From positions 1,805,001 through 1,869,000 of the forward strand of contig NC_088305.1 in NCBI RefSeq assembly GCF_032854445.1: DNA of 64,000 bases, written 5' to 3'. Both the position numbers and the translations under genes were made by a program. The stretch is from Liolophura sinensis (taxonomy: Eukaryota > Mollusca > Polyplacophora > Chitonida > Chitonidae). Under the pieces are notes generated by a model that had not been told where the DNA came from, searched no databases, and saw only the letters and a program-made list of their open reading frames with translations. Positions 11,103 through 56,224 of the stretch are shown here, one piece after another (the first letter of the stretch is position 1; the number at the start of each line of letters is the position of its first letter).

Positions 11103-11400
11103 GTTGGTAGATCCAGGATCAATTCTGGGTCGGGTCACACCTAAAACTTTAAAAGAGGAAGTTGTAGCTGTCTCGCTCAGCGTTCAGCGTTAAGGGGGAA
11201 GTGCAACGACTGGTTGGTCCGTATCAGTATAATGGCTCGGGCGGGTCGGCTTACTTGTCTTTGGTAAGTCGTCTCAGTGAAGCAACACTAGATAAAAGAG
11301 CGGTGGAAATCCGCCCTGCGACTAGAAGGCACATCACATGCACTCTAAGGGCTCTTTCGTCGTCATGTGACCGAAAACTTATTAAATACGACGTTAAACC
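11103..11400 (+). mobile_element. SINE family B, 5'-truncated, continuous with a tandem array
   Basis: Plus-strand copy beginning in the B-box region (GTAGATCCAGGATCAATTC), followed by the conserved body (TTTAAAAGAGGAAGTTGTAG, GTAAGTCGTCTCAGTGAAGC) and ending in the family tail TACGACGTTAAACCCCAAGC then ATACATA. Where the element should end, the 45-bp array at 11385-12680 begins, and its unit resembles this tail. Confidence 0.85.
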
Positions 11401-12680
11401 CCAAGCATACATATATGTGTATGCTTATTAAGTGCCACGTGAACCCCGAGCATACATACATGTGTATGCCTATTAAGTTCCACGTGAACCCCGAGCATAC
11501 ATACACGTATATGCCTATTAAGAGCGACGTGAACCCCAAGCATACATACATGTGTATGTCTATTAAGTACCACGTGAACCCCAAGCATACATACACGTAT
11601 ATGCCTATTAAGAGCGACGTGAACCCCAAGCATACATACATGTATATGCCTATTAATTACCACGTGAACTCCAAGCATACATACATGTGTATGCCTATTA
11701 ATTACCACGTGAACTCCAAGCATACATACATGTGTATGCCTATTAATTACCACGTGAACTCCAAGCATACATACATGTGTATGCCTATTAAGTTCCACGT
11801 GAACCCCGAGCTTACATAAAAGTGTATGCCTATTAAGTATGACGTGAATCCCAAGAATACATAAAAGTGTATGCCTGTTAAGTACCACGTGAACCCCAAG
11901 CATACATACATGTATATGCCTGTTAAGTACCACGTGAACCCCAAGCATACATACATGTGTATGCCTATTAATTACCACGTGAACTCCAAGCATACATACA
12001 TGTGTATGCCTATTAAGTACCATGTGAACCCCGAGCTTACATAAAAGTGTATGCCTATTAAGTATGACGTGAATCCCAAGAATACATAAAAGTGTATGCC
12101 TGTTAAGTACCACGTGAACCCCAAGCATACATACATGTATATGCCTGTTAAGTACCACGTGAACCCCAAGCATACATACATGTGTATGCCTATTAATTAC
12201 CACGTGAACTCCAAGCATACATACATGTGTATGCCTATTAAGTACCATGTGAACCCCGAGCTTACATAAAAATGTATGCCTATTAAGTATGACGTGAATC
12301 CCAAGAATACATAAAAGTGTATGCCTGTTAAGTACCACGTGAACCCCAAGCATACATACATGTATATGCCTATTAAGTACCGCGAGAACCCCAAGCATAC
12401 ATACATGTGCATGCCTGTTAAGTACCACGTGAACCCCAAGCATACATACATGTGTATGCCTATTAAGTACGACGAGAACCCCAAGCATACATACATGTGC
12501 ATGCCTGTTAAGTACCACGTGAACCCCAAGCATACATACATGTGTATGCCTATTAAGTACGACGAGAACCCCAAGCATACATACATGTGTATGCCTATTA
12601 AGTACGACGAGAACCCCAAGCATACATACATGTGCATGTCTACTAAGTACGACGTGAACCCTAGCATACATACACAGCCC
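11385..12680. repeat. 45-bp tandem array, about 29 copies, seeded by a SINE tail
   Basis: The unit reads roughly TACCACGTGAACCCCAAGCA + TACATACATGTGTATGCCTA + TTAAG. It matches the SINE-B tail immediately upstream (TACGACGTTAAACCCCAAGC, ATACATA). Variants with GACGAGAACC, CATGTGAACC and GACGTGAATC form blocks, and there is a higher-order pattern: a group of about five units is repeated around 11800-12030, 12030-12250 and 12260-12340. 45 is a multiple of 3, so long frames stay open on both strands (429 codons on the minus strand); they have no splice or start context and I do not call them genes. Confidence 0.95.
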
Positions 12681-12850
12681 CAAAAAATATTAAAGATCAT
12701 GTTTGCAAATAAGTTTTGACGCTCTTTCATCTGAGTTTGGCATCATTTTTATGTTTTCTTCTCCTTTAACGTGATTTCTGCCTTCGCATCGGCGACTATG
12801 TGTTGTGTACTTAAGGAAACCAAGACTTGCGTTTACAGCTTGATAAATAT

Positions 12851-20380: not shown

Positions 20381-23300
20381 CTGTAACAAAAACATGCAGG
20401 AAATATAAAACAACACAATAAAAGGAAGACTACACTAACTGTAATTCTTCAACCTTTTTGCCCTTTAAAGCACTTTTTTTCATCAGCGCTGGAATTTACA
20501 TATAAAGTTACCATGGAAATGATACTAAAACATTTGTTTGTGTCACTAAAGATACAAGCTTCATTAAACTATGTGAAATAGTTCTCTTCACTCCACATAA
20601 TTTTCTTACAACGTTTTTAAATATTGGTCACCTATGATTTATTTATTTATTTGATTGGTGTTTTACGCCGTACTCAAGAATATTTCACTTATACGACGGC
20701 CGCCAGCATTTTGGTGGGTGGAAACCGGGCACAGCCCGGGGGAAACCCACGACCATCCGCAGGTTGCTGGCGGACCTACCCACTTACGGCCGGAGAGGAG
20801 GTCACCTGTGAAGTTGAAGAATTATGGTAGCTCTACTGTAATTCTTCAACCATTTTGCATATTTGCAGAATGTTACCTTCAAGATATTAATATCTGTAGA
20901 ATCGTAGAGTGATAAAACTATACTTTTTTTGAAGTATTAAATCTGCCCACCCAACCAATGTAGTTTTGTCTCCATTAGTGCAAAATGCCTTTACATGTGC
21001 GTCATGGATATACCTGCAAAGTGGGGCATATTACGTCAATTCCACCGCAGTGTCACCAGTGCAATGTCACAATGAGCAGAGCCCATAGATGGAACTCCGG
21101 TAAATAATAAATGCATGAAAATCAGCATAAAAACTATGGATTTTAACTCTGGTGAGCTACCTTAACTAGCACAGAGTGATGTCTTTTGGTGTCATGAGTT
21201 GTCTCCCCTGTCTGCACATACCTGTATGGACCAGAGCCATTCCTGTGAGCCGCGCTCCCCTCGGCACTTCATGAGGCGGGGAGTGATGTCTGTCTGAGAC
21301 AGGGGGTCAATGTCCATACACAGACTGGCGGCTAGCTTCAGCTCGCTGTCACCAGTCTCGTACCAGGTCTACGAAGTCAATACACGACAATTTTTGTTAA
21401 TTTATTTGATTGGATTGGTGTTTTGTGTTCTACTCAAGAATATATCACTTATGCAATTACCATTATGGTGGGAGGAAACCGGGCAACCTACGACCATCTG
21501 CAGGTTGCTGGCCGACCTTCCGATGTAAGGCCAAAGGAGAAGTCAGCATGCACAACAATTTTAGTAAAATGTGAACTGTAAAATTTTATTGTGTAAAATT
21601 GTGGAAGTCTTCTTGTGAAAACATTAAAAATTTTCAGTAGGAATCTTCACAAATTCTCAAATGTACTGCTGTACAATTTTCCATGGCATATCTGTATAAA
21701 CAAGACAACTACAAATCAGGTCTCCAGGAATGTTGTATTTGTCAAGCCAAATCTACCGCTCCCTCTTTTTGTTTTAGAATGTTGCGACATCATTGGCAGT
21801 CCACGTTATCTCTTGAGTGAACACTGATTTTTTATCAAACTGTATAGTGAATATTGACATTCAAGACTGACCAAAAGCAGCTGAGACTTCACAGCAAGGC
21901 TACCAAAGAGCTCGTCTGCGAAGGACACATGGATGCTGACCATGAACTCAGTACAGAAAGGACTTCAATATTTACCTTCACATGGATTCTAACACACAAA
22001 ACAGATATGAAGGTCATGAGTTTGTTAATTAACAAAAGTGCAGGCCACCAACAGTGGAACATCTCGCCCATGTTTATGTATTGTGCTTTCCAAAAGCTGA
22101 GCTAATACCTGCAGTAATGTTTGAGACAGCCCCTAACAGCTAATGTCTGCAGTACTGTTTGAGATAACCCCTAACAGCTAATACCTCCAGTACTGTTTGA
22201 GATGACACCTAACAGCTAATACCTGCAGTACTGTTTGAGACGACCCCTAACAGCTAATACCTGCAGTACTGTTTGAGACAGCCCCTAACAGCTAATACCT
22301 GCAGTACTGTTTGAGACAGCCCCTAACAGCTAATACCTGCAGTACTGTTTGAGACAAACCCTAACAGCTAATACCTGCAGTACTGTTTGAGACGACCCCT
22401 AACAGCTAATACCTGCAGTACTGTTTGAGACAGCCCCTAACAGCTAATACCTGCAGTACTGTTTGAGATAACCCCTAACAGCTAATACCTGCAGTACTGT
22501 TTGAGATGACACCTAACAGCTAATACCTGCAGTACTGTTTGAGACGACCCCTAACAGCTAATACCTGCAGTACTGTTTGAGACAGCCCCTAACAGCTAAT
22601 ACCTGCAGTACTGTTTGAGACGACACCTAACAGCTAATACCTGCAGTACTGTTTGAGACGACACTTAACAGCTAATACCTGCAGTACTGTTTGAGATGAC
22701 ACCTAACAGCTAATACCTACAGTACTGTTTGAGACCCCTAACAGCTAATACCTGCAGTACTGTTTGAGACAACACCTAACAGCCAATACCTACAGTACTG
22801 TTTGAGACAACACCTAACAGCTAATACCTGCAGTACTGTTTGAGACGACACCTAACAGCTAATACTTGTAGTACTGTTTGAGACGACACCTAATAGCTAA
22901 TACCTGCAGTACTGTTTGAGACGACACACAACAGCTAATACCTGTAGTATTGTTTGAGACAACACCTAACAGCTAATACCTGTAGTATTGTTTGAGACAA
23001 CCCCTAACAGCTAATACCTGCAGTACTGTTTGAGACGACACCTAACAGCTAATTCCTGCAGTACTGTTTGAGACAGCCCCTAACAGCTAATACCTGCAGT
23101 ACTGTTTGAGACGTCACATAACAGCTAATACCTGCAGTACTGTTTGAGACACCTAACAGCTAATACCTGCAGTACTGTTTGAGACGACACCTAACAGCTA
23201 ATTCCTGCAGTACTGTTTGAGACAGCCCCTAACAGCTAATACCTGCAGTACTGTTTGAGATGTCACATAACAGCTAATACCTGCAGTACTGTTTGAGACA

Positions 23301-26300
23301 CCTAACAGTTAATACCTGCAGTACTGTTTGAGACAACCCCTAACAGCTAATACCTGCAGTTCTGTTTGAGACAGCCCCTAACAGCTAATACCTGCAGTAC
23401 TGTTTGAGACAACCCCTAACAGCTAGTACCTGCAGTACTGTTTGAGACAACCCCTAACAGCTAGTACCTGCAATACTGTTTGAGACACCTAACAGCTAAT
23501 ACCTGCAGTACTGTTTGAGACAACCCCTAACAGCTAGTACCTGCAGTACTGTTTGAGACAACCCCTAACAGCTAGTACCTGCAGTACTGTTTGAGACAAC
23601 CCCTAACAGCTAATACCTGCAGTACTGTTTGAGACAACCCCTAACAGCTAGTACCTGCAGTACTGTTTGACACAACCCCTAACAGCTAATACCTGCAGTA
23701 CTGTTTGAGACGACCCGTAACAGCTAATACCTGCAGTACTGTTTGAGACGGCTCCTAACAGCTAATACCTGCAGTACTGTTTGAGACAACCTCTAACAAG
23801 TAATACCTGCAGTACTGTTCGAGACAATTCCTAACAGCTAATTCCTGCAGTACTGTTTGAGACAACTCCAAACAGCTAATACCAGCGATACTGTTTGAGA
23901 CAACCCCTAACAACTAATACCTGCAGTACTGTTTGAGACAACCCCTAACAGCTAGTACCTGCAGTACTGTTTGAGACAACCCCTAACAGCTAATACCTGC
24001 AGTACTGTTTGAGACAACCCCTAACAGCTAATACCTGCAGTACTGTTTGAGACAACCCCTAACAGCTAATACCTGCAGTACTGTTTGAGACAACCCCTAA
24101 CAGCTAATACCTGTGATACTGTTTGAGACAACCCCTAACAGCTAATACCTGCAATACTGTTTGAGACAACCCCTAACAGCTAATACCTGCAGTACTGTTT
24201 GAGACGACCCCTAACAGCTAATACCTGCAGTACTGTTTGAGACGACTCCTAACAGCTAAAACCTGCAGTACTGTTTGAGACGTCACATAACAGCTAGTAC
24301 CTGCAGTACTGTTTGAGACGTCACACAACAGCTAATACCTGCAGTACTGTTTGAGACGACACCTAACAGCTAATACCTGCAGTACTATTTGAGACAATCC
24401 CTAACAGCTAATACCTGCGATACTGTTTGAGACGACCCCTAACAGCTAATACCTACAGTACTGTTTGAGACGACCCCTAACAGCTAACACCTGTAGTACT
24501 GTTTGAGACGACACTTAACAGCTAACACCTGCAGTACTGTTTGAGACGTCACATAACAGCTAGTACCTGCAGTACTGTTTGAGACGTCACATAACAGCTA
24601 GTGCCTGCAGTACTGTTTGAGACGTCACATAACAGCTAGTACCTGCAGTACTGTTTGAGACGTCACACAACAGCTAGTACCTGCAGTACTGTTTGAGATA
24701 AACCCCTAACAGCTAATCCCTGAAATGTTGAAAATTTCAAGTGTTAGGAATGAATACTGAGATAAGATCCTGCCAACAAGTCGCATTCTCTTACATCCCT
24801 CAGCAGCTATCCACAGCTCCTATTCCCCTTCAAGGGGCCTCCGTGGCTATGTCGGTTAGCGAGCTAGAGCAGCATCATGACCCAGGAGCCTCTCACCAAC
24901 GCGGTCGCTGTGAGTTCAAATCCAGCTCATGCTGGCTTCCTCTCCGGCCGTACGTGGGAAGGTTTGTCAGCAACCTCCGGATGGTTGTGGGTTTCCCCAG
25001 GACTAGGCCCGGTTTCCTCCCACTATAATGCCGGTCGCTGTCATATAAGTTAAATATTCTTGAGCACGGCGTAAAACACCAATCAAAAAAATAAATAAAT
25101 ATTCCCCTTCATCCACCACCCTACCTCTTGAAGAAATCCACGTACAATGACTTTCCAGCAGTTGTGCCACCACAGAGCAGTTGTTTTTCCGTCTTCCAAA
25201 GTCACATACAGGAGTTCAGGAGGGCTCTACCTGCTAACAACAGGCAGCGAGATCACCATATGACGTACACCACTCCCGAACTTTTGGAAAAATGACACAA
25301 AATGACGATTCGTACCTGTCGTTTACTTTTCTCCTGACATTTGGTGAGTTTGAGGGTTGTTTTCTTCTGGAAGATGTCGCCTACTGGCTCCACACACATT
25401 CCCGTGGCCTCATGTTCAAGCTGAATAGAGACAATAAATTTAATTAAAAGTTAAATTGAAAACAAATAATTATCCACAAAAAAACTACGGAAAATTAGAC
25501 CAGAAACTACATTTCCATATTTTTAACACATTTTGATTCAAATTTAACACCGGTCTTTATGAAACAAACTTGATAATGTTGAAAAAAAGACTTTTCTTTC
25601 TTTTTCACTCTCACCTTTCACGTGAAAGCTCTCCTTGGAATTCAAACGTTTGTCCACATTTTATTCAACAAAAATAGACGACTAGTGAGATGACTCACTG
25701 ATGGTTTTTTTTTTCACTTATTAAATTGTAAAAAAAAAAAATTGTAAAGCAGCATTCTTCATTTCCTTCAAAATCTCCAAACACAGAAGCTAGGAATCAT
25801 TACAAAGAACTGTTAAGAGAAACATATATATATATATATGTACATAGCAATTATAACTGTATTGTGCTATTTATTTTTTTCTGGTTTGATTACATTTTTC
25901 ACTTAACAGTTCAGGCAACTGATTGGTTGACTGAAATATGCACATGATGTATTTAATCTCACAATTCGCTTTAGTGCCATTCTTCCGTACGGGGGAAAGT
26001 CTGCCAGCAACCTGTGGATGGTTGTGGGATTTCTCCGGGCTCTGCCCGGTTTCCTCCCACCATAATGCTGGCCACCATTGTATAAGTGAAATATTCTTGA
26101 GTTTTACTTGAGTAAAACACCAATCAAATAAATAAACAAATCAAACAGTGCCACTCCTCATGATGACATGATTTGTTTATTTACCGTATTTATCTATTTG
26201 ATTGGTGTTTTATGCCATGCTCAAGAATATTTCACTTATACAACGTCAGCCAACATTATGGTGGGAGGAAACCGGGAACAGCCTGGGGAAAAACCCATGG

Positions 26301-29300
26301 CCATTTACAGGCTGCCAGCAGATCTTCCCATGTACGGCTGGAGAAGAAAGCAGTATGAGCTGGACTGGAACTCACAGCGACCACTTGTCTTAAGACTGGA
26401 ATGTCATGAAACAAAAAAGTTCATTTTTCAACATCAGAGTGCTACTTGTAATACAACAAAGCAGTAATAAAAAAAGTGAAATGTGAATTTATTACTGATT
26501 ATATCTGTGAAGGAAATCCTGATATTTCACCTTTAGACAAATAATTTCAGCAGTTTGTAAAACCTCACCTTTCCTTTTCTAATGACTTGAGCTTGTTTAG
26601 GTTTGAGTCTGTCTCCTATCATAGCTGGGGCTCGCCCATTCTTGTCTGCCACACTCTGAAACCATGTGATCATTTTGGGGGATTTAGCACAGATTCTAGC
26701 AGTGGAAATTGGCTGACCCGTGGAGACCTCTCTGGATTTTGAGCGACTGAGTTAGTTTAACTCGGATTCTACTCCTTGCTCAAGAATGTTTCACTTATAT
26801 AGCCAGTGGCCAGGATTATGGTGGGAGGAAATTAGGCAGAGTCCGTGGGAACCCGCAACCATACACAGTGGAACCCGTAACCATACACAGTCGAACCCGT
26901 AACCATACACAGTGGAACCTGTCGTTGACTCATAGACTTTTAAGACCAACAAGCATTACACCTGTGACATGAATTATACCTGTAACTATCAGAGATGACA
27001 TTGTTCCTAAAACCCAAAGGTAACACTGGAAAAAGTTATTAAGAACACGGGTTAAGTACCGGTATCACGGTCATTTATTAACATCATTTCTGATTTTCAC
27101 TTTCTGGAAATAGCAGATAAAGAGGTTTATAAACAGCTGCAGAAAACTGAGTAGAGGGATGAAGAAAACAAGGATGCTGTTGGAGAAATATCACATAACC
27201 TTCTTGAGGGTAACTTGGTAAATTTAACCAGGAATGACCTTGTCAAGGGTCAGAGATTTACAGTACTATGTTTTCCTTTACTCATAAAACTGACAGTCTT
27301 TTGCAAAGGAAGTCAACAATTCTTGTATGCGTCAGGAAACCACTATCAAAGAATCAGATATTGGCACAGATTCTTGATATTCTTGAAGAAAGTAGTTCTG
27401 TTGATCATATCTAGACTTGTTGGTGATGAAAAACCTACCTGCTGAGGGTAGACGTTCTCCATGTACCACTTGAAAGATTTACAGCCAAGACGTTTTCTCA
27501 GGGCCAGCCTTTCAGAGATATCACCATAGTCCATGTTACGCAGAGCTGGTTCCCTTTTCAAAAACTCCTCCTGTAATGTACGTTTAGAACATCAAAATTT
27601 ACCTCAAACTCATCCACCTAGACATGAGCTACCCTAACAAAGCCCCTGCAGCGTTACACTCTTACCGTATGCTCATCCATTCAGGCATGAGCTACCCTAA
27701 CAAAGCTACTGTAAGGTTACAGTTAACCTCATACTCATCCACCTAGACATAAGTTACCATAACAGAGCCACTGTAGGGTTACAGTTAACCTCATAGTCAT
27801 CCATTCAGACATGAGCTACCCTAACAAAGCCCCTGCAGCGTTACACTCTTACCGTATGCTCATCCACTCAGGCATGAGCTACCCTAACAAAGCCACTGTA
27901 GGGTTACAGTTTACCTCATAGTCATCCACCCAGACATGAGCTACCCTAACAAAGCCCCTGTAGGGTTACAGTTTACCTCATAGTCATCCACCCAGACATA
28001 AGCTACCCTAACAAAGCCCTTGTAAGGTAACAGTTTACCTTATACTCATCCATCCAGACATAAGCTACTGTAAAAAAGCCCATGCAGGGTTACAGCTTAC
28101 CTTATACTCATCCATCCAGACATGAGCTACTCTAACAAAGCCACTGTAAGGTTACAGTTTACCTCATAGTCATCCACCCAGACATAAGCTACCCTAACAA
28201 AGCCACTGTAGGGTTACAGTTTACCCCATAGTCATCCATTCAGACATGAGCTACCCTAACAAAGCTACTGTAAGGTTACAGTTTACCTCATACTCATCCA
28301 CCCAGACATAAGCTACCCTAACAAAGCCACTGTAGGGTTACAGTTTACCTCATAGTCATCCACCCAGACATAAGCTACCCTAACAAAGCCCATGTAAGGT
28401 TACAGTTAACCTCATACTCATCCATCCAGACATGAGCTACTCTAACAAAGCCACTGTAGGGTTACAGTCTACCTCATACTTATCCATCCAGGCATGAGCT
28501 ACCCTAACAAAGCTACTGTAAGGTTACAGTTTACCTCATAGTCATCCATTCAGACATAAGCTACCATAACAAAGCCAATGTAGGGTTACAGTTAACCTCA
28601 TACTCATCCATCCAGACATGAGCTACCCTAACAAAGCCAATGTAGGGTTACAGTTAACCTCATACTCATCCATCCAGACATGAGCTACCCTAACAAAGCC
28701 ACTGTAGGGTTACAGTTTACCTCACACTCATCCATCCAGACATAAGCTACCCTAACAAAGCCACTGTAGGGTTACAGTTAACCTCATACTCATCAATCCA
28801 GACATGAGCTACCCTAACAAAGCCAATGTAGGGTTACAGTTAACCTCATACTCATCCATCCAGACATGAGCTACCCTAACAAAGCCACTGTAGGGTTACA
28901 GTTTACCTCACACTCATCCATCCAGACATAAGCTACCCTAACAAAGCCACTGTAGGGTTACAGTTAACCTCATACTCATCAATCCAGACATGAGCTACCC
29001 TAACAAAGCCCCTGTAGGGTTACAGTCTACCTCATAGTCATCCATACAGACATAAGCTACCCTAACAAAGCCCCTGTAGGGTAACAGTTTACCTTATACT
29101 CATCCATCCAGACATGAGCTACCCTAACAAAGCCCTTGTAGGTTAACAGTTTACCTTATACTCATCCATCCAGACATGAGTTACCTTAACAAAGCCCCTG
29201 CAGGGTTCCAGTTTACCTTATACTCATCCATCCAGACATAAGCTACCGTAACAAAGCCCATGCAGGGTTACAGCTTACCTTATACTCATCCATCCAGACA

Positions 29301-32300
29301 TGAGCTACCGTAACAAAGCCCATGCAGGGTTACAGTTTACCTTATACTCATCCATCCAGACATGAGCTACCCTAACAAGGCCCCTGCAGGGTTACAGTTA
29401 CCTTATACTCATCCATTCAGAGGTGAGCTACCCTAACAAAGCCCCTGCAGGGTTCCAGTTTACCTTATACACATCCATACAGACATAAGCTACCCTAACA
29501 AAGCCCCTGCAGGGTTACAGTTTAACTTATACTCATCCATCCAGACATGAGCTACCGTAACAAGGCCCATGCAGGGTTACAGTTTACCTTATACTCATCC
29601 ATCCAGACATGAGCTACCGTAACAAGGCCCATGCAGGGTTACAGTTTACCTTATACTCATCCATCCAGACATGAGCTACTGTAACAAAGCCCATGCAGGG
29701 TTACAGCTTACCTTATACTCATCCATCCAGACGTGGGCTACCCTCAAAGAGTTCTTGGTCAGTGTGTTTCCTCCTTTAGGGTCCCCGTACGGCCTGCGAC
29801 TCCTGAACACGTGACCCACGCGAGAGCAAGGTAATATCTCCAGGCGTCCTCCACACTGCCAAATCTAAAGATAAAAACCCGCCATGGCTCACTGATTTGA
29901 TCGCAATGACAGCACTCAATTCAAGATCAGCAAGCGAATTAAGCGAATTTATATACGGCTGCACTAAAAAGGCAAACCTTACATGTATGAGGTGGATGAA
30001 GTCCCATGTGAACCTGCACACAGAATTTTACCACAGTTCAGTGGCCTACCTTCATTTACACGCATGTAGGAATTGTTTTAGCTTACTCAGGATGTGATAT
30101 ACTTACCATCGTACTTACATACATTATTCTCTTGACAGATAACCGAACACTTACCCTGAATGACATCTCTAAATTTTCTCCTCCCCAAATATCCATGCCT
30201 GGGTCATACTGCCCCATTGTGTAAAAGTAGTCCCTCTCGATAGCAAATAGTCCCCCTGCCATTGTTGGTGATCTACAAAAAAGAAGAGATCAAAGTGGTT
30301 GAATCAACAAACAATTAAATGGTCATGACACCTCAGTCTTTTGGAACAGAAAACACAATTTCAAAAGCAGTCTATCCTGTTTCTACACATGAACACTACA
30401 TTCATAAAGTTTTAATTTTTTTTCAAAGCTAAAAATAAACACTTCTGATTTCTGATTCTTTTTAAAATAAAGCAAACCAGCTTGGTTCTACATGAAGCTC
30501 ATAAGAACGGTATTCCCAAAGACACACTTAAATATATTTATTACATGAGACATACTATTTTCATAAGGGCTAAAAATTCAAATATGGGATTTGACACACC
30601 GGTCACACTTGCTGTTTTTGCAAGAGCCAAAGAGACAAATATGAGATTTGCTATACTGAAGATGCTGTTTTCAAAAGAAATGAAAACACAAATGTGAGAT
30701 TTGCTACGTTGGAGACACTGTTTATATAAACGTCAAAGAGCTAAATATAATATCTGACACATTGGAGACACTGTTTTTACAAAAGTTAAAGAGACAAATA
30801 TGAACTTTAACTTGAATAAGCGGATGAGAAGTGATAAGCCTTTATCAGAATATATGGAATCTATCAGTTCTGAGGAACAGGTTGACAGACTCGACCCAGT
30901 TTTCTCCTCCAAAAAACCAGTCCAACCATCATAAATAAACTAATATTGAGCTAATGATTCAGTTTTACGTGAGTCCGGGAACTCTCCTAAACTCAGAAAT
31001 GTGTTTTGAGGTTTGATCAGAATGCAGGATGAAATCCTTCTGGAAAAAATGTTTCTGTACTTTTAATAAGTTTCTGTACCATACTGTAAGTCTTCATCCT
31101 TATTCAACCACTAAAGCTTTTGTCTTCATGGGAATTAAAATATACAAGTATTATCAAAATTTTGCTGAAATGATTTGTTTGTGTCACTAAAGATGCAAGC
31201 TCCGTGAAATGGTGCAAATTATTTCTCTACATCCCACACTGCTCTCAGAATGTTTAAAAATACTGGTGGCAGAGGCAGTTGAAAAGTTTCAAGAATCAGA
31301 GCCTGTAATATTTTAGGTCATTTATTTGCCTCTTAAAGTGTGCTTGTATACATTACATGTAAAGACATTTATCAACTCCATGAGTACAAGATTCTTCTGT
31401 GGCCATTTCTAGATTCACTTTGGTTGTGGAAAACATTTGGGCTCCCAAACTGTTGGCTGCCTTAACTAAACAAGCCGTATTAAAACTAACAGGTAAATTT
31501 AACAAAAAACATGATGATTTACCAATAACAAATAACAAGTTTTCATACAAACTTTCATTCAGACATAAAAGCTGTTAGAAAGCATTATTCTGAGTTGCAT
31601 TTTTTAAATTTCTTTATACACAGACACAGTATCACTATTAATGTTTGGGATTAGAACTTTCAATGTTTCTCCAGATATGATCCTGATGGTGGACAACCTC
31701 AATCAAGCTAAGAAATCAACAAATAAAACAGCCACTGAACAATGATGGCAGATACTCACTCTATTGGCTCTGTCTTCTGCTGATTGGTCAACGCTTGGGG
31801 CAAGGGGTCCCAGCGGAAGTGAAGTCCCCAGTTAAACCCACCCCGCACCAGAGGGGAGGCCGTGTACTCAAACGTCTCCGCGGTGATGACATCAATGATT
31901 GGCAGGACAACGACAGTCCTGTCCTCTTGTATCCTTGACAACATTGGCGTGGCCCATCCTTCTGTCACCTCACAGTGGCTGTCCAGGAATATCAACACCT
32001 GACAAAGACAACACAAAACACACTAAAATCGGTATAAACCTAAACAGGATTTGTTATTTGACATATTTGTACTTTTCCAGAATGAAATATTGATCAATGT
32101 TTATATATACAAGTTTGACATGTTAATGACATCTTGCAGACTTATCTGTTTGATTAATTAAAATAAATGAATGAGGGTTTCATCCACACCTAACATTTGT
32201 TGTTTTTTTGTTTAACCCCTGTACTAACCACTGGACATTTATTCACATCCAGGATTACATTGTACAATGCCAAGTAATGTAATCCTGGATGTGCCTTTAA

Positions 32301-35300
32301 TATATATATTCACTGCTCAAGTTGAGTTATAGGTTGTATATGTCAATGCATCTAAACAAACAAGTAACATAGAGTGAGTTATCTCCCCTGTTCTCCTGAT
32401 ATCCTCTCAAGTTACCTCCCCTGATGCCTTTGACGCTCCAAACATCCTCGCTCTGATCAGCCCCAGTCTCTCTGCGCTATGGAAAACTTTCACCTTGGAA
32501 AAGTGAACTGTGACATACATGTTGAGATCGTCCTTCAGGTGACCTTGAAACAAGGAAACACCAGACATACAACCAGCCCCATATATTGAACAGAGCAGAA
32601 GCGAAAAATGTTCTTAGAGAGATTAATACAGCACAATATCGCTGCCATACTGCTGAAGTAGTGTTAAGCCATAATCATTCATTTATTCATTCATTTTCAT
32701 TCCCGAGACCAAATGTGATCAGATACATTCTAAGCCTTGCATATTACAATAACAATACTTCTCATTAAAATGTTACAAAATGAAGGCATCTCTCTTCTGT
32801 CACAAAAATAAAATACCTTCTCTAGGTTTGCTCCAAGCAAGAAAATACCCAAACACAGAATGAGCAGGAGAAATCTTGAGTCATATGAATTTTTAAAATT
32901 GTAGCTTACATTAACCCAATAAACAGAGCTATTTTATAACAGTGTTATAAGTAACGCTAATCAGGTTAGTGGAACAAATACAATATTTGCCTAGTATGAT
33001 AATAGAGGGTTTGTTTTTGATCTACATGTACTTTTGGGTGCCATATTACAGAAATGTTACTATACCTACTCCAATATGGAGAGCCAGCCATTAATGTTAT
33101 GCTATCAGTTATGTGCAACCCCCTCTGACATTGGGGCTGTTTTTTTACATAGCTTTCACAACATCAGGGCATCTTTAAAGATATCTTGAGTCAGACGTTA
33201 GCTTTCAACATAATGATGAAAATTCTTTTCGGAAAATCAGTCTTCCAACCAAAATGATATAGGACATAATTATCATGGAAAGATTCTATAAAGTTTTGAA
33301 AGCCGAGAATGATGGACAGTTCACCTAGAGAAGCCATGTTGTAGAAGCCCTTATGGACCTGGCCAATCACTACCTCTGAAAGCGTCACATGATAACTGGC
33401 TGTCAAGTCAAAAAACCTATTAGCTCTCGATTGTTAGTGTGGTTTCTTACAGTGGACAGACAGATAACAATGCAACAAATTGGATTTTGCGCTTAGTTTA
33501 AGTGTTAAACTAATACAGTTTGGACCACACATTCATGAGCAGGGAACTGAGAACGGCTGCCCGTGTCACTCTGCTTACATGTTGGGTGGGATACTGCAGT
33601 AGCTTGTCAGGGTAAGCTGCCAAGAAAACCGCCTCTGGGGAGTCACTGCTTGAAGAAAAATATTGTGACTTTTCACTATATTTCCTAAGCAAATTCAGAT
33701 TTTCTATGAAAATATCTTCCCAAAATCTGAATGAAAGAGTCTGTTATCAGTCAGAAGGTCCTGCTATGTTTGGTAAACTCCCAGAAGTCGGTGCAGCCAG
33801 CTAGGCGAAATGCTTACACTCATTCAGGACCAGGACGAGTAGGGCTGCTAAAACACAATGCTTGCATCTACGAAGATTGCCCTGACATAGACGACTAAAA
33901 AAAAACATCGGCCGTCTGAACATGGAACAGAGCTGATATTCTCTGGTTGGGTATCAGGCATTTTCATTTGCATTTTCTTATTGTTACACTGTTTAATACC
34001 AATGGTATGGGAGAACCCCTAGCTTTTGTGACAGCTATAACATAGCAAGACGGCATCACCAAATGAGTAGCTAGGAACTGATAATTGTTTGCTACTTATC
34101 CTGTTGACAAGCAGTGTGGAATTTTAAATAATTTTTTAAAAGATTTCTGGAATACTATTTTATCAATTAATTCAGCTTTAGAGGCTGAACTCGAACTCAA
34201 AACTTCCCCATTCTTGTTCGTGATCAAAATTTGACTTACTAAGGTCACTTTTATCATCCACAAGAATGATCTCTTTGAGCAAATCCGGTGGGGTGAAGTC
34301 AATCACGCTGTACACGGTCCTCATCAACACTGACCAGGCCTCATCATAAAAACAAATGACCACACTGGCCTGAGGCAGGTTGGCTGGGTACACCTTCTGG
34401 GCACACCTGATGACAAACAAGGGAGGTAATCACTGAGCACAGGGCATGTAAACCATGCATTGCAATGCTATTGCAGAGGTAGCCATAGGGCTTGTGTTCA
34501 TTGACAAATGTGGTACGTGTGTGGCTTATTTATTTACTTATTTCATTGGTGTTTCACACTGTACTCAAGAATATTTCACTTATAGGACGACGGTAAATAT
34601 TATGGTTGGAGGAAACCGGGCAGAGCCAGAGGGAAAACCCATGACCATCGGCATGTTTCTGACAGACCTTATTACATACGGGTGGAGAGGAATCCAGCAT
34701 GAGCTGGACATGAATTCACAGTGATCACATTGGTGAGAGGCTCCTGGGTCACTGGACTGCGCTAGCGTGCTAACCCACTCGTACGTGGGAAGGTCTGCAG
34801 CAACCTGCGGATGGGCGTGAGTTTCCGCCAGGCTCTGCCTGGTTTCCTCCCACCATACATGTTGGCCGCCATCATAGAAGTGAAATATCCTTGAGTACGG
34901 CGTAAAACACCAATCAAATAAATAAATAAATACATTAGCCTAATAACAAAATGGTTAATTTAACAAGACAAGGCCGTTGATTCCTCGCCAAAGAATGGGC
35001 CATTTAAAATTGGAATAAAATTAAACCTCGGCAAAAAAGCTTATAACTGGACAAATGGCTAACTGCAGAGATGCTATCAAGTATACCCGCAGGAATACTT
35101 GAGTTATATCACCTGAAATGTGGTCACCTATGTCCCCATCAGCTACCTATCAGCTATATTCACAGGAATGTTATCAGCTATATTCACAGGAATGTTATCA
35201 GCTATATTCACAGGAATGATATCAGCTATATTCACAGGAATGGTATCAGCTATATTCACAGGAATGCTATCAGCTACATTCACAGGAATGCTATCAGCTA

Positions 35301-41004: not shown

Positions 41005-43632
41005 GCCTGAAAATTCTGTTGAGTGTGGAAAAGCCTTTACATGATGTGCAGATGTATGATTCTGTTGAGTGTGGAAAAGCCTTTACATGATGTGCTGATG
41101 TATGATACTGTTGAGCGTGGAAAAGCCTTTACATGATGTGCAGATGTATGATTCTGTTGAGTGTGGAAAAGCCTTTACATGATGTGCAGATGTATGATAC
41201 TGTTGGGTGTGGAAAAGTCTTTACACGATGTGCCGATGTATGATTCTGTTGAGTGTGGAAAAGCCTTTACATGGTGTGCCGATGTATGATTCTGTTGAGT
41301 GTGGAAAGGCCTTTACATGATGTGCAGATGTATGATTCTGTTGAGTATGGAAAAGCCTTTACATGATGTGCCGATGTATGAGTCTGTTGAGTGTGGAAAA
41401 GCCTTTACATGATTTGCTGATGTATGCGTCTGTTGAGTGTGGAAAAGCCTTTACATGATGTGCAGATGTATGATTCTGTTGAGTGTGGAAAAGCCTTTAC
41501 ATGATGTGCCAATGTATGAGTCTGTTGAGTGTGGAAAAGCCTTTACATGATGTGCTGATGTATGGTTCTGTTGAGTGTGGAAAAGCCTTTACATGATGTG
41601 CCGCTGTATGATTCTGTTGAGTGTGGAAAAGCCTTTACATGATGTGCAGATGTATGGTTCTGTTGAGTGTGGAAAAGCCTTTACATGGTGTGCCGATGTA
41701 GGATTCTGTTGAGTGTGGAAAAGCCTTTACATGATGTGCTGATGTATGATTCTGGTGAGTGTGGAAAAGCCTTTACATGATGTGCTGATGTATGATTCTG
41801 TTAAGTGTTGAAAAGCCTTTACATGATGTGCTGATGTATGGTTCTGTTGAGTATGGAAAAGCCTTTACATGGTGTGCTGATGTATGACTGTTGAGTGTGG
41901 AAAAACCTTTATATGATGTGCCCAAGTATGATTCTGTTGAGCGTGGAAAAGCCTTTACATGGTGTGCTGATGTATGATTCTGTTGAGTGTGGAAAAGCCT
42001 TTACATGATGTGCCGATGTATGAGTCTGATGAGTGTGGAAAAGCCTTACATGATGTGCTGATGTATGATTCTGATGAGTGCGGAAAAGCCTTTACATGAT
42101 TTGCTGATGTATGATTCTGTTGAGCGTGGAAAAGCCTTTACATGATGTGCCGATGTATGATTCTGTTGAGTGTGGAAAAGCCTTTACATGATGTGCAGAT
42201 GTATGATTCTGTTGAGCGTGGAAAAGCCTTTACATGGTGTGCCGATGTATGATTCTGTTGAGTGTGGAAAAGCCTTTACATGATTTGCTGATGTATGATT
42301 CTGTTGAGTGTGGAAAAGCCTTTACATGATGTGCTGATGTATGATTCTGTTGAGTGTGGAAAAGCCTTTACATGATGTGCTGATGTATGGTTCTGTTGAG
42401 TATGGAAAAGCCTTTACATGGTGTGCCGATGTATGACTCTGTTGAGTGTGGAAAAGCCTTTATATGATGTGCCCAAGTATGATTCTGTTGAGCGTGGAAA
42501 AGCCTTTACATGGTGTGCTGATGTATGATTCTGTTGAGCATGGAAAAGCCTTTACATGGTGTGCCGATGTAGGATTCTGTTGAGTGTGGAAAAGCCTTTA
42601 CATGGTGTGTCGATGTAGGATTCTGTTGAGTGTGGAAAAGCCTTTACATGGTGTGCCGATGTATGATTCTGTTGAGCATGGAAAAGCCTTTACATGATGT
42701 ACTGATGTATGAGTCTGTTGAGTGTGGAAAAGCCTTTACATGATGTGCTGATGTATGATTCTGTTGAGTGTGGAAAAGCCTTTACATGATGTGCAGATGT
42801 ATGATTCTTTGAGCGTGGAAGAGCCTTTACATGATGTGCTGATGTATGATTCTGTTGAGTGTGGAAAAGCCTTTACATGATGTGCTGATGTATGGTTCTG
42901 TTGAGTATGGAAAAGCCTTTACATGGTGTGCCGATGTATGACTGTGTTGAGTGTGGAAAAGCCTTTACATGATGTGCACAAGTATGATTCTGTTGAGCGT
43001 GGAAAAGCCTTTACATGGTGTGCTGATGTATGATTCTGTTGAGTGTGGAAAGGCCTTTACATGATGTGCAGATGTATGATTCTGTTGAGTGTGGAAAAGC
43101 CTTTACATGATGTGCCGATGTATGAGTCTGTTGAGTGTGGAAAAGCCTTACATGATGTGCTGATGTATGATTCTGATGAGTGCGGAAAAGCCTTTACATG
43201 ATTTGCTGATGTATGATTCTGTTGAGTGTGGAAAAGCCTTTACATGATGTGCCGATGTATGATTCTGTTGAGTGTGGAAAAGCCTTTACATGATGTGGAG
43301 ATGTATGATTCTGTTGAGTGTGGAAAATCCTTTACATGGTGTGCCGATGTATGATTCTGTTGAGTGTGGAAAAGCCTTTACATGATGTGCCGATGTATGA
43401 TTCTGTTGAGTGTGGAAAAGCCTTTACATGATGTGCAGATGTATGATTCTGTTGAGTGTGGAAAAGCCTTTACATGGTGTGCCGATGTATGATTCTGATG
43501 AGTGCAGAAAAGCCTTTACATGATTTGCTGATGTATGATTCTGTTGAGCGTGGAAAAGCCTTTACATGATGTGCCGATGTATGATTCTGTTGAGTGTGGA
43601 AAAGCCTTTACATGATGTGCAGATGTATGATG
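41005..43632. repeat. 46-bp tandem array, about 57 copies
   Basis: The unit is TTCTGTTGAGTGTGGAAAAG + CCTTTACATGATGTGCCGAT + GTATGA. Variants (ATGGTGTGCC, GATTTGCTG, GAGCGTGG) recur in the same order in separate blocks, which points to multi-unit duplication. The translated ECGKAF is noted under rejected items. Confidence 0.97.
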
Positions 43633-45278: not shown

Positions 45279-46136
45279 CAGGTACTGGCATTATTAAAAT
45301 GTTATTTACCTGTCCATTCTTTGTTGTCCCAAAGAGTGGGCTGATGTCAGAATACTGTGGAGGGCAGGACATTGCCATTGTCCTGCAGGTACTGGCATTA
45401 TTAAAATGTTATTTACCTGTCCATTCTTTGTTGTCCCAAAGAGTGGGCTGATGTCAGAATACTGTGGAGGGCAGGACATTGCCATTGTCCTGCAGGTACT
45501 GGCATTATTAAAATGTTATTTACCTGTCCATTCTTTGTTGTCCCAAAGAGTGGGCTGATGTCAGAATACTGTGGAGGGCAGGACATTGCCATTGTCCTGC
45601 AGGTACTGGCATTATTAAAATGTTATTTACCTGTCCATTCTTTGTTGTCCCAAAGAGTGGGCTGATGTCAGAATACTGTGGAGGGCAGGACATTGCCATT
45701 GTCCTGCAGGTACTGGCATTATTAAAATGTTATTTACCTGTCCATTCTTTGTTGTCCCAAAGAGTGGGCTGATGTCAGAATACTGTGGAGGGCAGGACAT
45801 TGCCATTGTCCTGCAGGTACTGGCATTATTAAAATGTTATTTACCTGTCCATTCTTTGTTGTCCCAAAGAGTGGGCTGATGTCAGAATACTGTGGAGGGC
45901 AGGACATTGCCATTGTCCTGCAGGTACTGGCATTATTAAAATGTTATTTACCTGTCCATTCTTTGTTGTCCCAAAGAGTGGGCTGATGTCAGAATACTGT
46001 GGAGGGCAGGACATTGCCATTGTCCTGCAGGTACTGGCATTATTAAAATGTTATTTACCTGTCCATTCTTTGTTGTCCCAAAGAATGGGCTGATGTCAGA
46101 ATACTGTGGAGGGCAGGTCATTGCCATTGTCCTGCT
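45279..46136. repeat. 107-bp tandem array, 8 copies, nearly identical
   Basis: The unit starts CAGGTACTGGCATTATTAAA and ends GGCAGGACATTGCCATTGTC + CTG. The copies are almost identical; the last differs by GAATGGG and AGGTCATT. Each unit has CAGGACA and TGTCCTG as hairpin arms around TTGCCAT. High identity suggests recent expansion (or an assembly issue). Confidence 0.97.
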
Positions 46137-55387: not shown

Positions 55388-55664
55388 GGGCCTCTGTGGC
55401 TCAGTCGGTTAGCGCGCTAGCGCAGCGTAATGACCCAGAAGCCTCTCACCAATGCGGTCGCTGTGAGTTCAAGACAAGCTCATGCTGCCTTCCTCTCCGG
55501 CCGTACGTGGGAAGGTTTGCCAGCAAGCTGCGGATGGTCGTGGGTTTCCCCCGGGCTCTGCCTGGTTTCCACCCACCATAATGCTGGCCGCCGTCGTATA
55601 AGTGAAATATTCTTGAGTATGGCGTAAAACACCAATCAAAAAAAAAAAAAAAAAAAAAAAAAAA
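55388..55664 (+). mobile_element. SINE family A, full length with perfect 13-bp target-site duplication
   Basis: Best-preserved copy here. A-box TGGCTCAGTCGG (55397-55408), B-box GTTCAAGAC (55467-55475), central domain CCGTACGTGGGAAGGTTTGC, tail ACACCAATC followed by about 28 A. TCAAATTGTCTAG flanks it on both sides (55375-55387 and 55665-55677). It looks like a recent insertion. Confidence 0.97.
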
Positions 55665-55677
55665 TCAAATTGTCTAG

Positions 55678-56224
55678 ACAATCGCTCAATGCCATCCTGC
55701 CCTGAACACCCCCACCCTGTTAATGTTCTTCCAACCATGATAGACCTTTCTGGCCTAGCATTCAAGATGAAATTTTTAAAGCTTTATGGCAGGCATGCAA
55801 CAGTGAACCATTATTTAGAGAATAAAAGATAACAAATGTACAGTTGTATCATAGACGCTAATGTACTGGTGTGTGTTTTAGATCAGATTTTTTTTTTACC
55901 AAGAACAGCTCAAATTATTGCGTTTCAGACACTATCAAACTCATTCCTGTACTATTTTTTCATGTTAGAATAATTCTAATGTTTGAAAAAGGTATAAAGG
56001 GGCCCGCATAAATTTTGCCAAAATTTGGAGAAGTGTCAGTAACAAATACATACATGTGCATGTAATGTGTAACAAACCACTGCAAGCGATCAGGCTTGAG
56101 CATTAAAGTCTTAAAGTTTAGTTAAATTAATGAGTCAATAGACAGCCCAAGAGTGTAATTTTTTAAATGTTTGCGGTCAGATATGTTCAGGATTTAGGGT
56201 CTCATGTCAGATAAGCTTATTTTT
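55678..56224. other. No feature recognised
   Basis: AT-rich sequence between two SINEs, without a supported gene. Confidence 0.35.

What the first reader, a model, noticed from the sequence alone, without database searches (positions are those of the whole stretch)
27571..29864. An intron built from about 35 tandem copies of the preceding exon's end and its 5' splice site
Intron 7 of the GALNT11-like gene is nearly all a 62-bp array, and each unit (minus strand) holds about 30 nt of exon 7 (coding [10 protein letters not shown]) plus GTAAGC/GTAAAC donor sequence and about 20 nt of filler. The pre-mRNA therefore offers the spliceosome dozens of near-identical donors after the true one. Units are 62 bp, so use of a downstream donor would usually shift the frame. 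Each unit also has a weak acceptor-like CTTTGTTAG just before the exon-like part, so short repeat exons are conceivable. Such an array could be neutral, could act as a donor decoy system, or could mark a replication-slippage hotspot that began at the splice junction.
Basis: partly seen in the sequence, partly recalled or inferred. Interest (0 to 1): 0.85.

Follow-up and report, generated by a model that had tools for sequence, protein, structure and literature searches.

The report
Intron grown from repeated splice junction
In a chiton gene for a sugar-attaching enzyme, almost a whole intron consists of 34 repeats of the preceding exon's end and its splice signal; similar arrays sit on other exon edges sampled in this genome, so it looks like a recurrent kind of mutation rather than a one-off device.

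Summary
Intron 7 (27571-29711, minus strand) of a GALNT-family gene is 98.7% a 62-bp tandem array: the authentic junction plus 34 copies, each with about 31 nt of exon end, a donor and about 31 nt of intron. GT is kept in 33 of 34 copies. The assembly matches the chiton Liolophura sinensis (published as L. japonica). The same architecture is published for amphioxus as "mirage" minisatellites, so the kind is known; the library searches listed in the report showed no mollusc case. New here: in 94 kb around other genes of this genome, 8 of 71 splice junctions, donor and acceptor, are overlapped by the end of such an array, against 0.92 expected (0 of 20,000 trials). Best explanation: junction-spanning tandem duplication, expanded by slippage or unequal exchange, tolerated because the outermost site is used (inferred; no RNA data). 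No copy pairs better with U1 than the authentic donor, and use of any downstream donor reads into TAG after 11 codons. A designed decoy system is not supported but not excluded. Why junctions seed arrays is open; in one paralogue the repeat is wholly exon-like, resembling the AGGT-duplication model of intron gain.

The parts
29712..29864 (-). Exon 7 of a GALNT-family gene; its last 31 nt (29712-29742) are the exon half of the repeat unit
   Evidence: Translation and tblastn; PDB match of exons 6-8 to GALNT1, E 1.3e-54
29706..29711 (-). Authentic donor GTAAGC; U1 duplex -9.5 kcal/mol, not beaten by any copy
27598..29744 (-). 62-bp tandem array: authentic junction (unit 0), 33 full copies, one partial copy
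   Evidence: TRF; unit cut
28814..28999 (-). Three-unit block (units 12-14), identical to units 15-17
28628..28813 (-). Second copy of the three-unit block (units 15-17)
29273..29278 (-). Donor of unit 7, GTAAGC, equal in U1 pairing to the authentic one
28095..28100 (-). Donor of unit 26, GTAAGC, equal in U1 pairing to the authentic one
27571..27597 (-). Unique end of intron 7 with the acceptor AG at 27571-27572
27439..27570 (-). Exon 8 ([17 protein letters not shown]...); the match ends at 27439
30155..30265 (-). Exon 6 (matched part), shared with the two paralogues on the same contig

Best explanation
A tandem duplication spanning the exon-7/intron-7 junction put copies of exon end, donor and intron start into the intron (shown by sequence). 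The array then grew, partly by block duplication (shown: one identical three-unit block), by slippage or unequal exchange (route inferred). It is tolerated because splicing uses the exon-proximal donor and the array leaves with the intron (inferred; no RNA data). It is one case of a recurrent process in this chiton genome that favours splice junctions on both donor and acceptor sides (enrichment shown, cause not shown). In most cases examined the duplicated piece straddles a junction; in one paralogue it is wholly exon-like and an exon-internal GGTGAAC corresponds to the donor.
For: Unit anatomy. No copy pairs better with U1 than the authentic donor: -9.5 against a mean of -6.25 kcal/mol, 2 of 34 equal. 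Downstream donors would add a stop after 11 codons. Exon-like parts decay: 8 of 34 with stops. Exon and copies differ at two synonymous positions fixed in 34 and 33 of 34 copies, so no recent homogenisation of exon by array. Junction arrays in other genes: 8 of 71 junctions, 8 of 33 arrays, 0.92 expected, 0 of 20,000; first subset 5 of 49, 0.36 expected. Paralogue B unit matches the exon end at 23 of 26 letters. Published mirages were reported not to disturb splicing (passages).
Against: No RNA data: donor use is inferred. 0 of 30 kinase loci had an array over the matched part (6 of 30 had any listed array), though these are mostly long single-exon matches. By the plain measure 'junction lies in locally repeated DNA', junctions are not enriched: 4 of 49 against 14.5% of all positions; only array ends are. 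A decline of likeness to the exon with distance, as growth from the exon would give, is clear in this array (rho -0.59, P 0.0004) but not significant in the other 7 tested. In several other arrays the copies carry donors or acceptors identical to the authentic site, so weaker copies are not the general reason for correct choice.
Confidence: 0.72

Rival explanations
1. The array is a functional donor decoy or expression switch: choosing a downstream donor adds a premature stop and lowers enzyme output in some tissue or state.
For: GT kept in 33 of 34 copies; any downstream choice gives a stop.
Against: Most copies have weaker U1 pairing. GT columns vary little, but about half of the unit's columns do too. 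Similar arrays occur at unrelated genes and at acceptors.
Confidence: 0.07
2. The array took part in moving or creating this intron: repeats of exon end and donor were recruited as a new intron position.
For: In this gene the intron lies 11 codons before the position that paralogues A and B share. A recruitment model of this kind was proposed for amphioxus globins (passages). Paralogue B's unit is wholly exon-like.
Against: The position may simply be ancestral in this GALNT subfamily; no other species could be compared. The intron half of this unit shows no likeness to the exon beyond chance (P 0.13).
Confidence: 0.14
3. Units are used as short repeat exons, spliced between the acceptor-like end of one unit and its donor.
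For: Many units have TTAG or, at unit 1, TTACAG before the exon-like part.
Against: Weak pyrimidine tract (55-65% in 20 nt, first six units), 8 of 34 parts with in-frame stops, about 31 nt per exon-like part, so not a multiple of 3.
Confidence: 0.03
4. Assembly artefact or collapsed or expanded repeat.
For: Published depth is 14x only; copy number may be off by a few.
Against: Mean HiFi read 8,347 bp against a 2.1-kb array; copies differ at many sites; unit 0 passes directly into coding exon.
Confidence: 0.02

Closest known systems
"Mirage" minisatellites of amphioxus (Adh3, globins BflGb6 and BflGb9, troponin C; similar repeats in PGBD5); passages of PMC3087553 and PMC3902484
   Same: Tandem repeats that span an exon-intron boundary and duplicate the splice signal, on donor or acceptor side; reported not to disturb normal splicing
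   Different: Here a mollusc; 34 copies in this intron and about 50 at one acceptor, against 3-6 units quoted for BflGb6; and a measured excess at junctions. Length instability, reported in amphioxus, was not testable here
Intron gain by tandem duplication of an AGGT-bearing exon segment (Rogers model; passages of PMC4974935)
   Same: Tandem duplication supplies splice signals; paralogue B fits an exon-only unit with an internal GGTGAAC
   Different: No gained intron is shown here; in the window gene the unit contains intron sequence, so an intron was already present
Ordinary intronic minisatellites
   Same: Head-to-tail units of tens of bases with block duplication
   Different: The array's end lies inside a coding exon and covers the splice site

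Membership tests
Mirage minisatellite | Tandem units that contain both exon end and intron start across a real junction | tested here: met
   exon identity
Mirage minisatellite | Splice dinucleotide present in many but not all copies | tested here: met
   GT in 33 of 34
Mirage minisatellite | Normal splicing from the authentic site | not testable with these tools
   no RNA data
Mirage minisatellite | Copy-number instability between individuals or haplotypes | not testable with these tools
   one haplotype held; one search found only this locus and two diverged paralogues
Mirage minisatellite | Found in cephalochordates (all cases seen in print) | tested here: not met
   Assembly matches a chiton by size and 632 scaffolds; this is a limit of past reports, not part of the structure
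Intron gain by AGGT tandem duplication | Unit derived from exon only | tested here: not met
   Window gene: remaining part 11 of 32 identical, P 0.13; paralogue B does meet it, 23 of 26
Intron gain by AGGT tandem duplication | Intron absent in close relatives | not testable with these tools
   no other mollusc genome held

The most novel reading that the evidence does not exclude
In this chiton genome splice junctions are themselves mutational hot spots for tandem duplication, perhaps through a process coupled to transcription or splicing, so that about one junction in nine carries an exon-edge array, introns lengthen outward from exon edges, and splicing must routinely pick the outermost of dozens of near-equal sites.
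Probability: 0.28. Interest if true: 0.85.

Novelty: new member of a known kind. Interest (0 to 1): 0.6.

Why it matters
If the sampled rate holds across the genome, it offers very many natural tests of how the spliceosome chooses among near-identical neighbouring sites, with published RNA-seq that could answer it now. It would also turn boundary minisatellites from a lancelet curiosity into a wider way in which introns grow, and a possible source of new intron positions.

Tried and rejected
Rejected: the 62-bp unit as an old dimer of two 31-nt halves (P 0.68 and 0.17). Left open: weak likeness of the unit's intron half to the last intron piece (P 0.02, one of several tests). Rejected: coding use of the copies (8 of 34 with stops). 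The mirage literature first made me think of amphioxus; mitochondrial gene order (the comparison with chitons is recalled) and assembly statistics pointed to a chiton.

Limits of the junction count. Junctions were set by me from HMM matches plus GT or AG, not from RNA. Dropped as unclear: 14 of 78 myosin exon edges and 7 of 14 GALNT edges. The window was left out because it was chosen for its array. Exon 9 of paralogue A was left out because I found it by looking at its array. A degenerate donor-like array in L061 was not counted. Stretches were chosen from the exon list by compactness before I saw their letters, but the last four were fetched after the first positive count, so the stopping point was not fixed beforehand; those four stretches (22 junctions) gave 3 of the 8. 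The 30 kinase loci were not in the rotation test.

Unanswered question: exon places of the whole GALNT gene by family search (got no answer).

Full report
What is there. TRF reports a 62-bp array at 27598-29744. Cut into units on the minus strand it is the authentic exon-7 end with its donor (unit 0), 33 full copies and one partial copy, then unique sequence to the acceptor at 27571-27572. Of the 33 full copies 30 are 62 bp, one 61 and two 63. Each unit has about 31 nt of exon end ([10 protein letters not shown]), a donor and about 31 nt of intron. Intron 7 is 2141 nt long and 2114 nt of it (98.7%) are array. The exon end shares 24-29 of 31 letters with the copies. At two synonymous positions the exon has C where 34 and 33 of 34 copies have T, so exon and array have drifted apart since the array formed. 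Units 12-14 are repeated exactly as units 15-17.

Identity of gene and organism. The joined peptides of exons 6-8 match 16 PDB sequences at E <= 0.001, best GALNT1 at 1.3e-54; the GALNT11 label was not tested. The window's assembly has 609,464,459 bases in 632 contigs. PMC11068029 (passages) gives 609,495,693 bases, 632 scaffolds and HiFi reads of mean 8,347 bp at 14x for a chiton published as Liolophura japonica, later corrected to L. sinensis (whole text of PMC12441733). The 31-kb difference is unexplained. The mitochondrial gene order is, from recall, that of chitons.

How splicing would see it. By U1 duplex energy the authentic donor scores -9.5 kcal/mol; 2 of 34 copies equal it, none beats it, and the copies average -6.25. 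Sequence after the authentic donor reads [11 protein letters not shown] and then TAG, so use of any downstream donor adds a premature stop. Eight of 34 exon-like parts hold in-frame stops. This fits silent copies better than a designed decoy, but there are no RNA data. In several other arrays the copies carry sites identical to the authentic one (23 of 47 donors in paralogue A, 44 of 50 acceptors in L060, 7 of 7 donors in one L062 array), so there position rather than strength would have to decide.

The wider pattern. A search with the flank and exon 6 gave this locus and two GALNT paralogues on the same contig. Paralogue A (L012+L015) has a 46-bp array on a donor and a 118-bp array on the next acceptor; paralogue B (L013+L014) has a 26-bp array on a donor. 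I then took myosin-head exons from a family search, choosing compact stretches before seeing their letters. With 71 junctions (36 donors, 35 acceptors) in 94.4 kb there are 33 arrays; 8 have their end over a junction, five at donors and three at acceptors, reaching 9-48 nt into the exon: paralogue A twice, B, L057, L060, L062 twice, L064. Random rotation of arrays within each stretch gives 0.92 on average and never 8 in 20,000 trials; moving each array independently gives the same. The first 49 junctions alone gave 5 against 0.36. Exon 9 of paralogue A is a further case found by looking at its array.

Results against the pattern. None of 30 kinase loci had an array over the matched part; 6 of 30 had any listed array. 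The share of junctions with at least two local copies (4 of 49) is not above that of all positions (14.5%), so the excess lies in array ends falling on junctions, not in repeat content near junctions. Junctions were placed without RNA; 14 of 78 myosin edges and 7 of 14 GALNT edges were dropped as unclear. Likeness to the exon falls with distance in this array (rho -0.59, P 0.0004, on 32 copies found by that script) but not significantly in the seven others tested.

Origin. In nine of ten arrays compared, the intron part of the unit is no more like the neighbouring exon than chance, so the duplicated piece straddled a junction. In paralogue B the whole unit matches the last 26 nt of the exon at 23 of 26 letters, 9 of 12 in the intron part, and the exon's internal GGTGAAC corresponds to the donor, as in the AGGT-duplication model (passages of PMC4974935). 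The window gene's intron lies 11 codons before the position shared by paralogues A and B; whether it moved or is ancestral cannot be told here.

Known or new. Boundary-spanning tandem repeats are published for amphioxus as mirages (passages of PMC3087553, and of PMC3902484). Seven library searches on the theme listed no mollusc case by title or abstract start; passages of a Conus intron paper (PMC3862624) and of a chiton genome paper (PMC11545220) and of a five-chiton comparison (PMC12005716) showed none. The library lacks most subscription papers, and the original amphioxus Adh paper was not seen. I file this as a new member of a known kind; the new points are the phylum and the measured excess at junctions.

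Noticed in passing
whole window: About 17.5 kb of the 64 kb (27%) lies in tandem arrays (27 merged TRF arrays, summed), including 22100-24722 (38 bp x 69) and 41013-43631 (46 bp x 57).
   Followed up: partly
45279-46135: A 107-bp array, 8 copies, 99% alike; on the minus strand each unit has a stretch between ...TGCAG and GTAAAT that could be an exon with its own splice sites.
   Followed up: no
22100-24722: Each 38-bp unit reads ...CTGCAG|GTATTA on the minus strand, a donor-like motif; no flanking exon was established.
   Followed up: partly
11394-12689: A 45-bp array leaves a 431-codon open frame on the minus strand, as expected from a unit length divisible by 3.
   Followed up: no
L024-L025 (G000:C99): Contig C99 (108,685 bases) holds seven COX1 matches spaced about 15.5 kb, i.e. 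head-to-tail copies of the mitochondrial genome, probably an assembly effect. The mitochondrial DNA contains a run of roughly 400 bases of simple repeat next to the tRNA cluster.
   Followed up: partly
L057:5202-5300 and L057:6295-6387: Two neighbouring myosin exons encode nearly the same peptide (LEDQI(V/I)QANPVLEAYGNAKT), like mutually exclusive alternatives.
   Followed up: no
window 26132-26467, 34580-34939, 55469-55783: Similar peptide stretches ([20 protein letters not shown]) recur in several open frames, perhaps a dispersed short repeat.
   Followed up: no
L012:8641-9009: Exon 9 of GALNT paralogue A ends in GCTAATCAG|GTAAGA and starts a 79-bp array of about 4.7 copies: a further junction array, not in the count.
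   Followed up: yes
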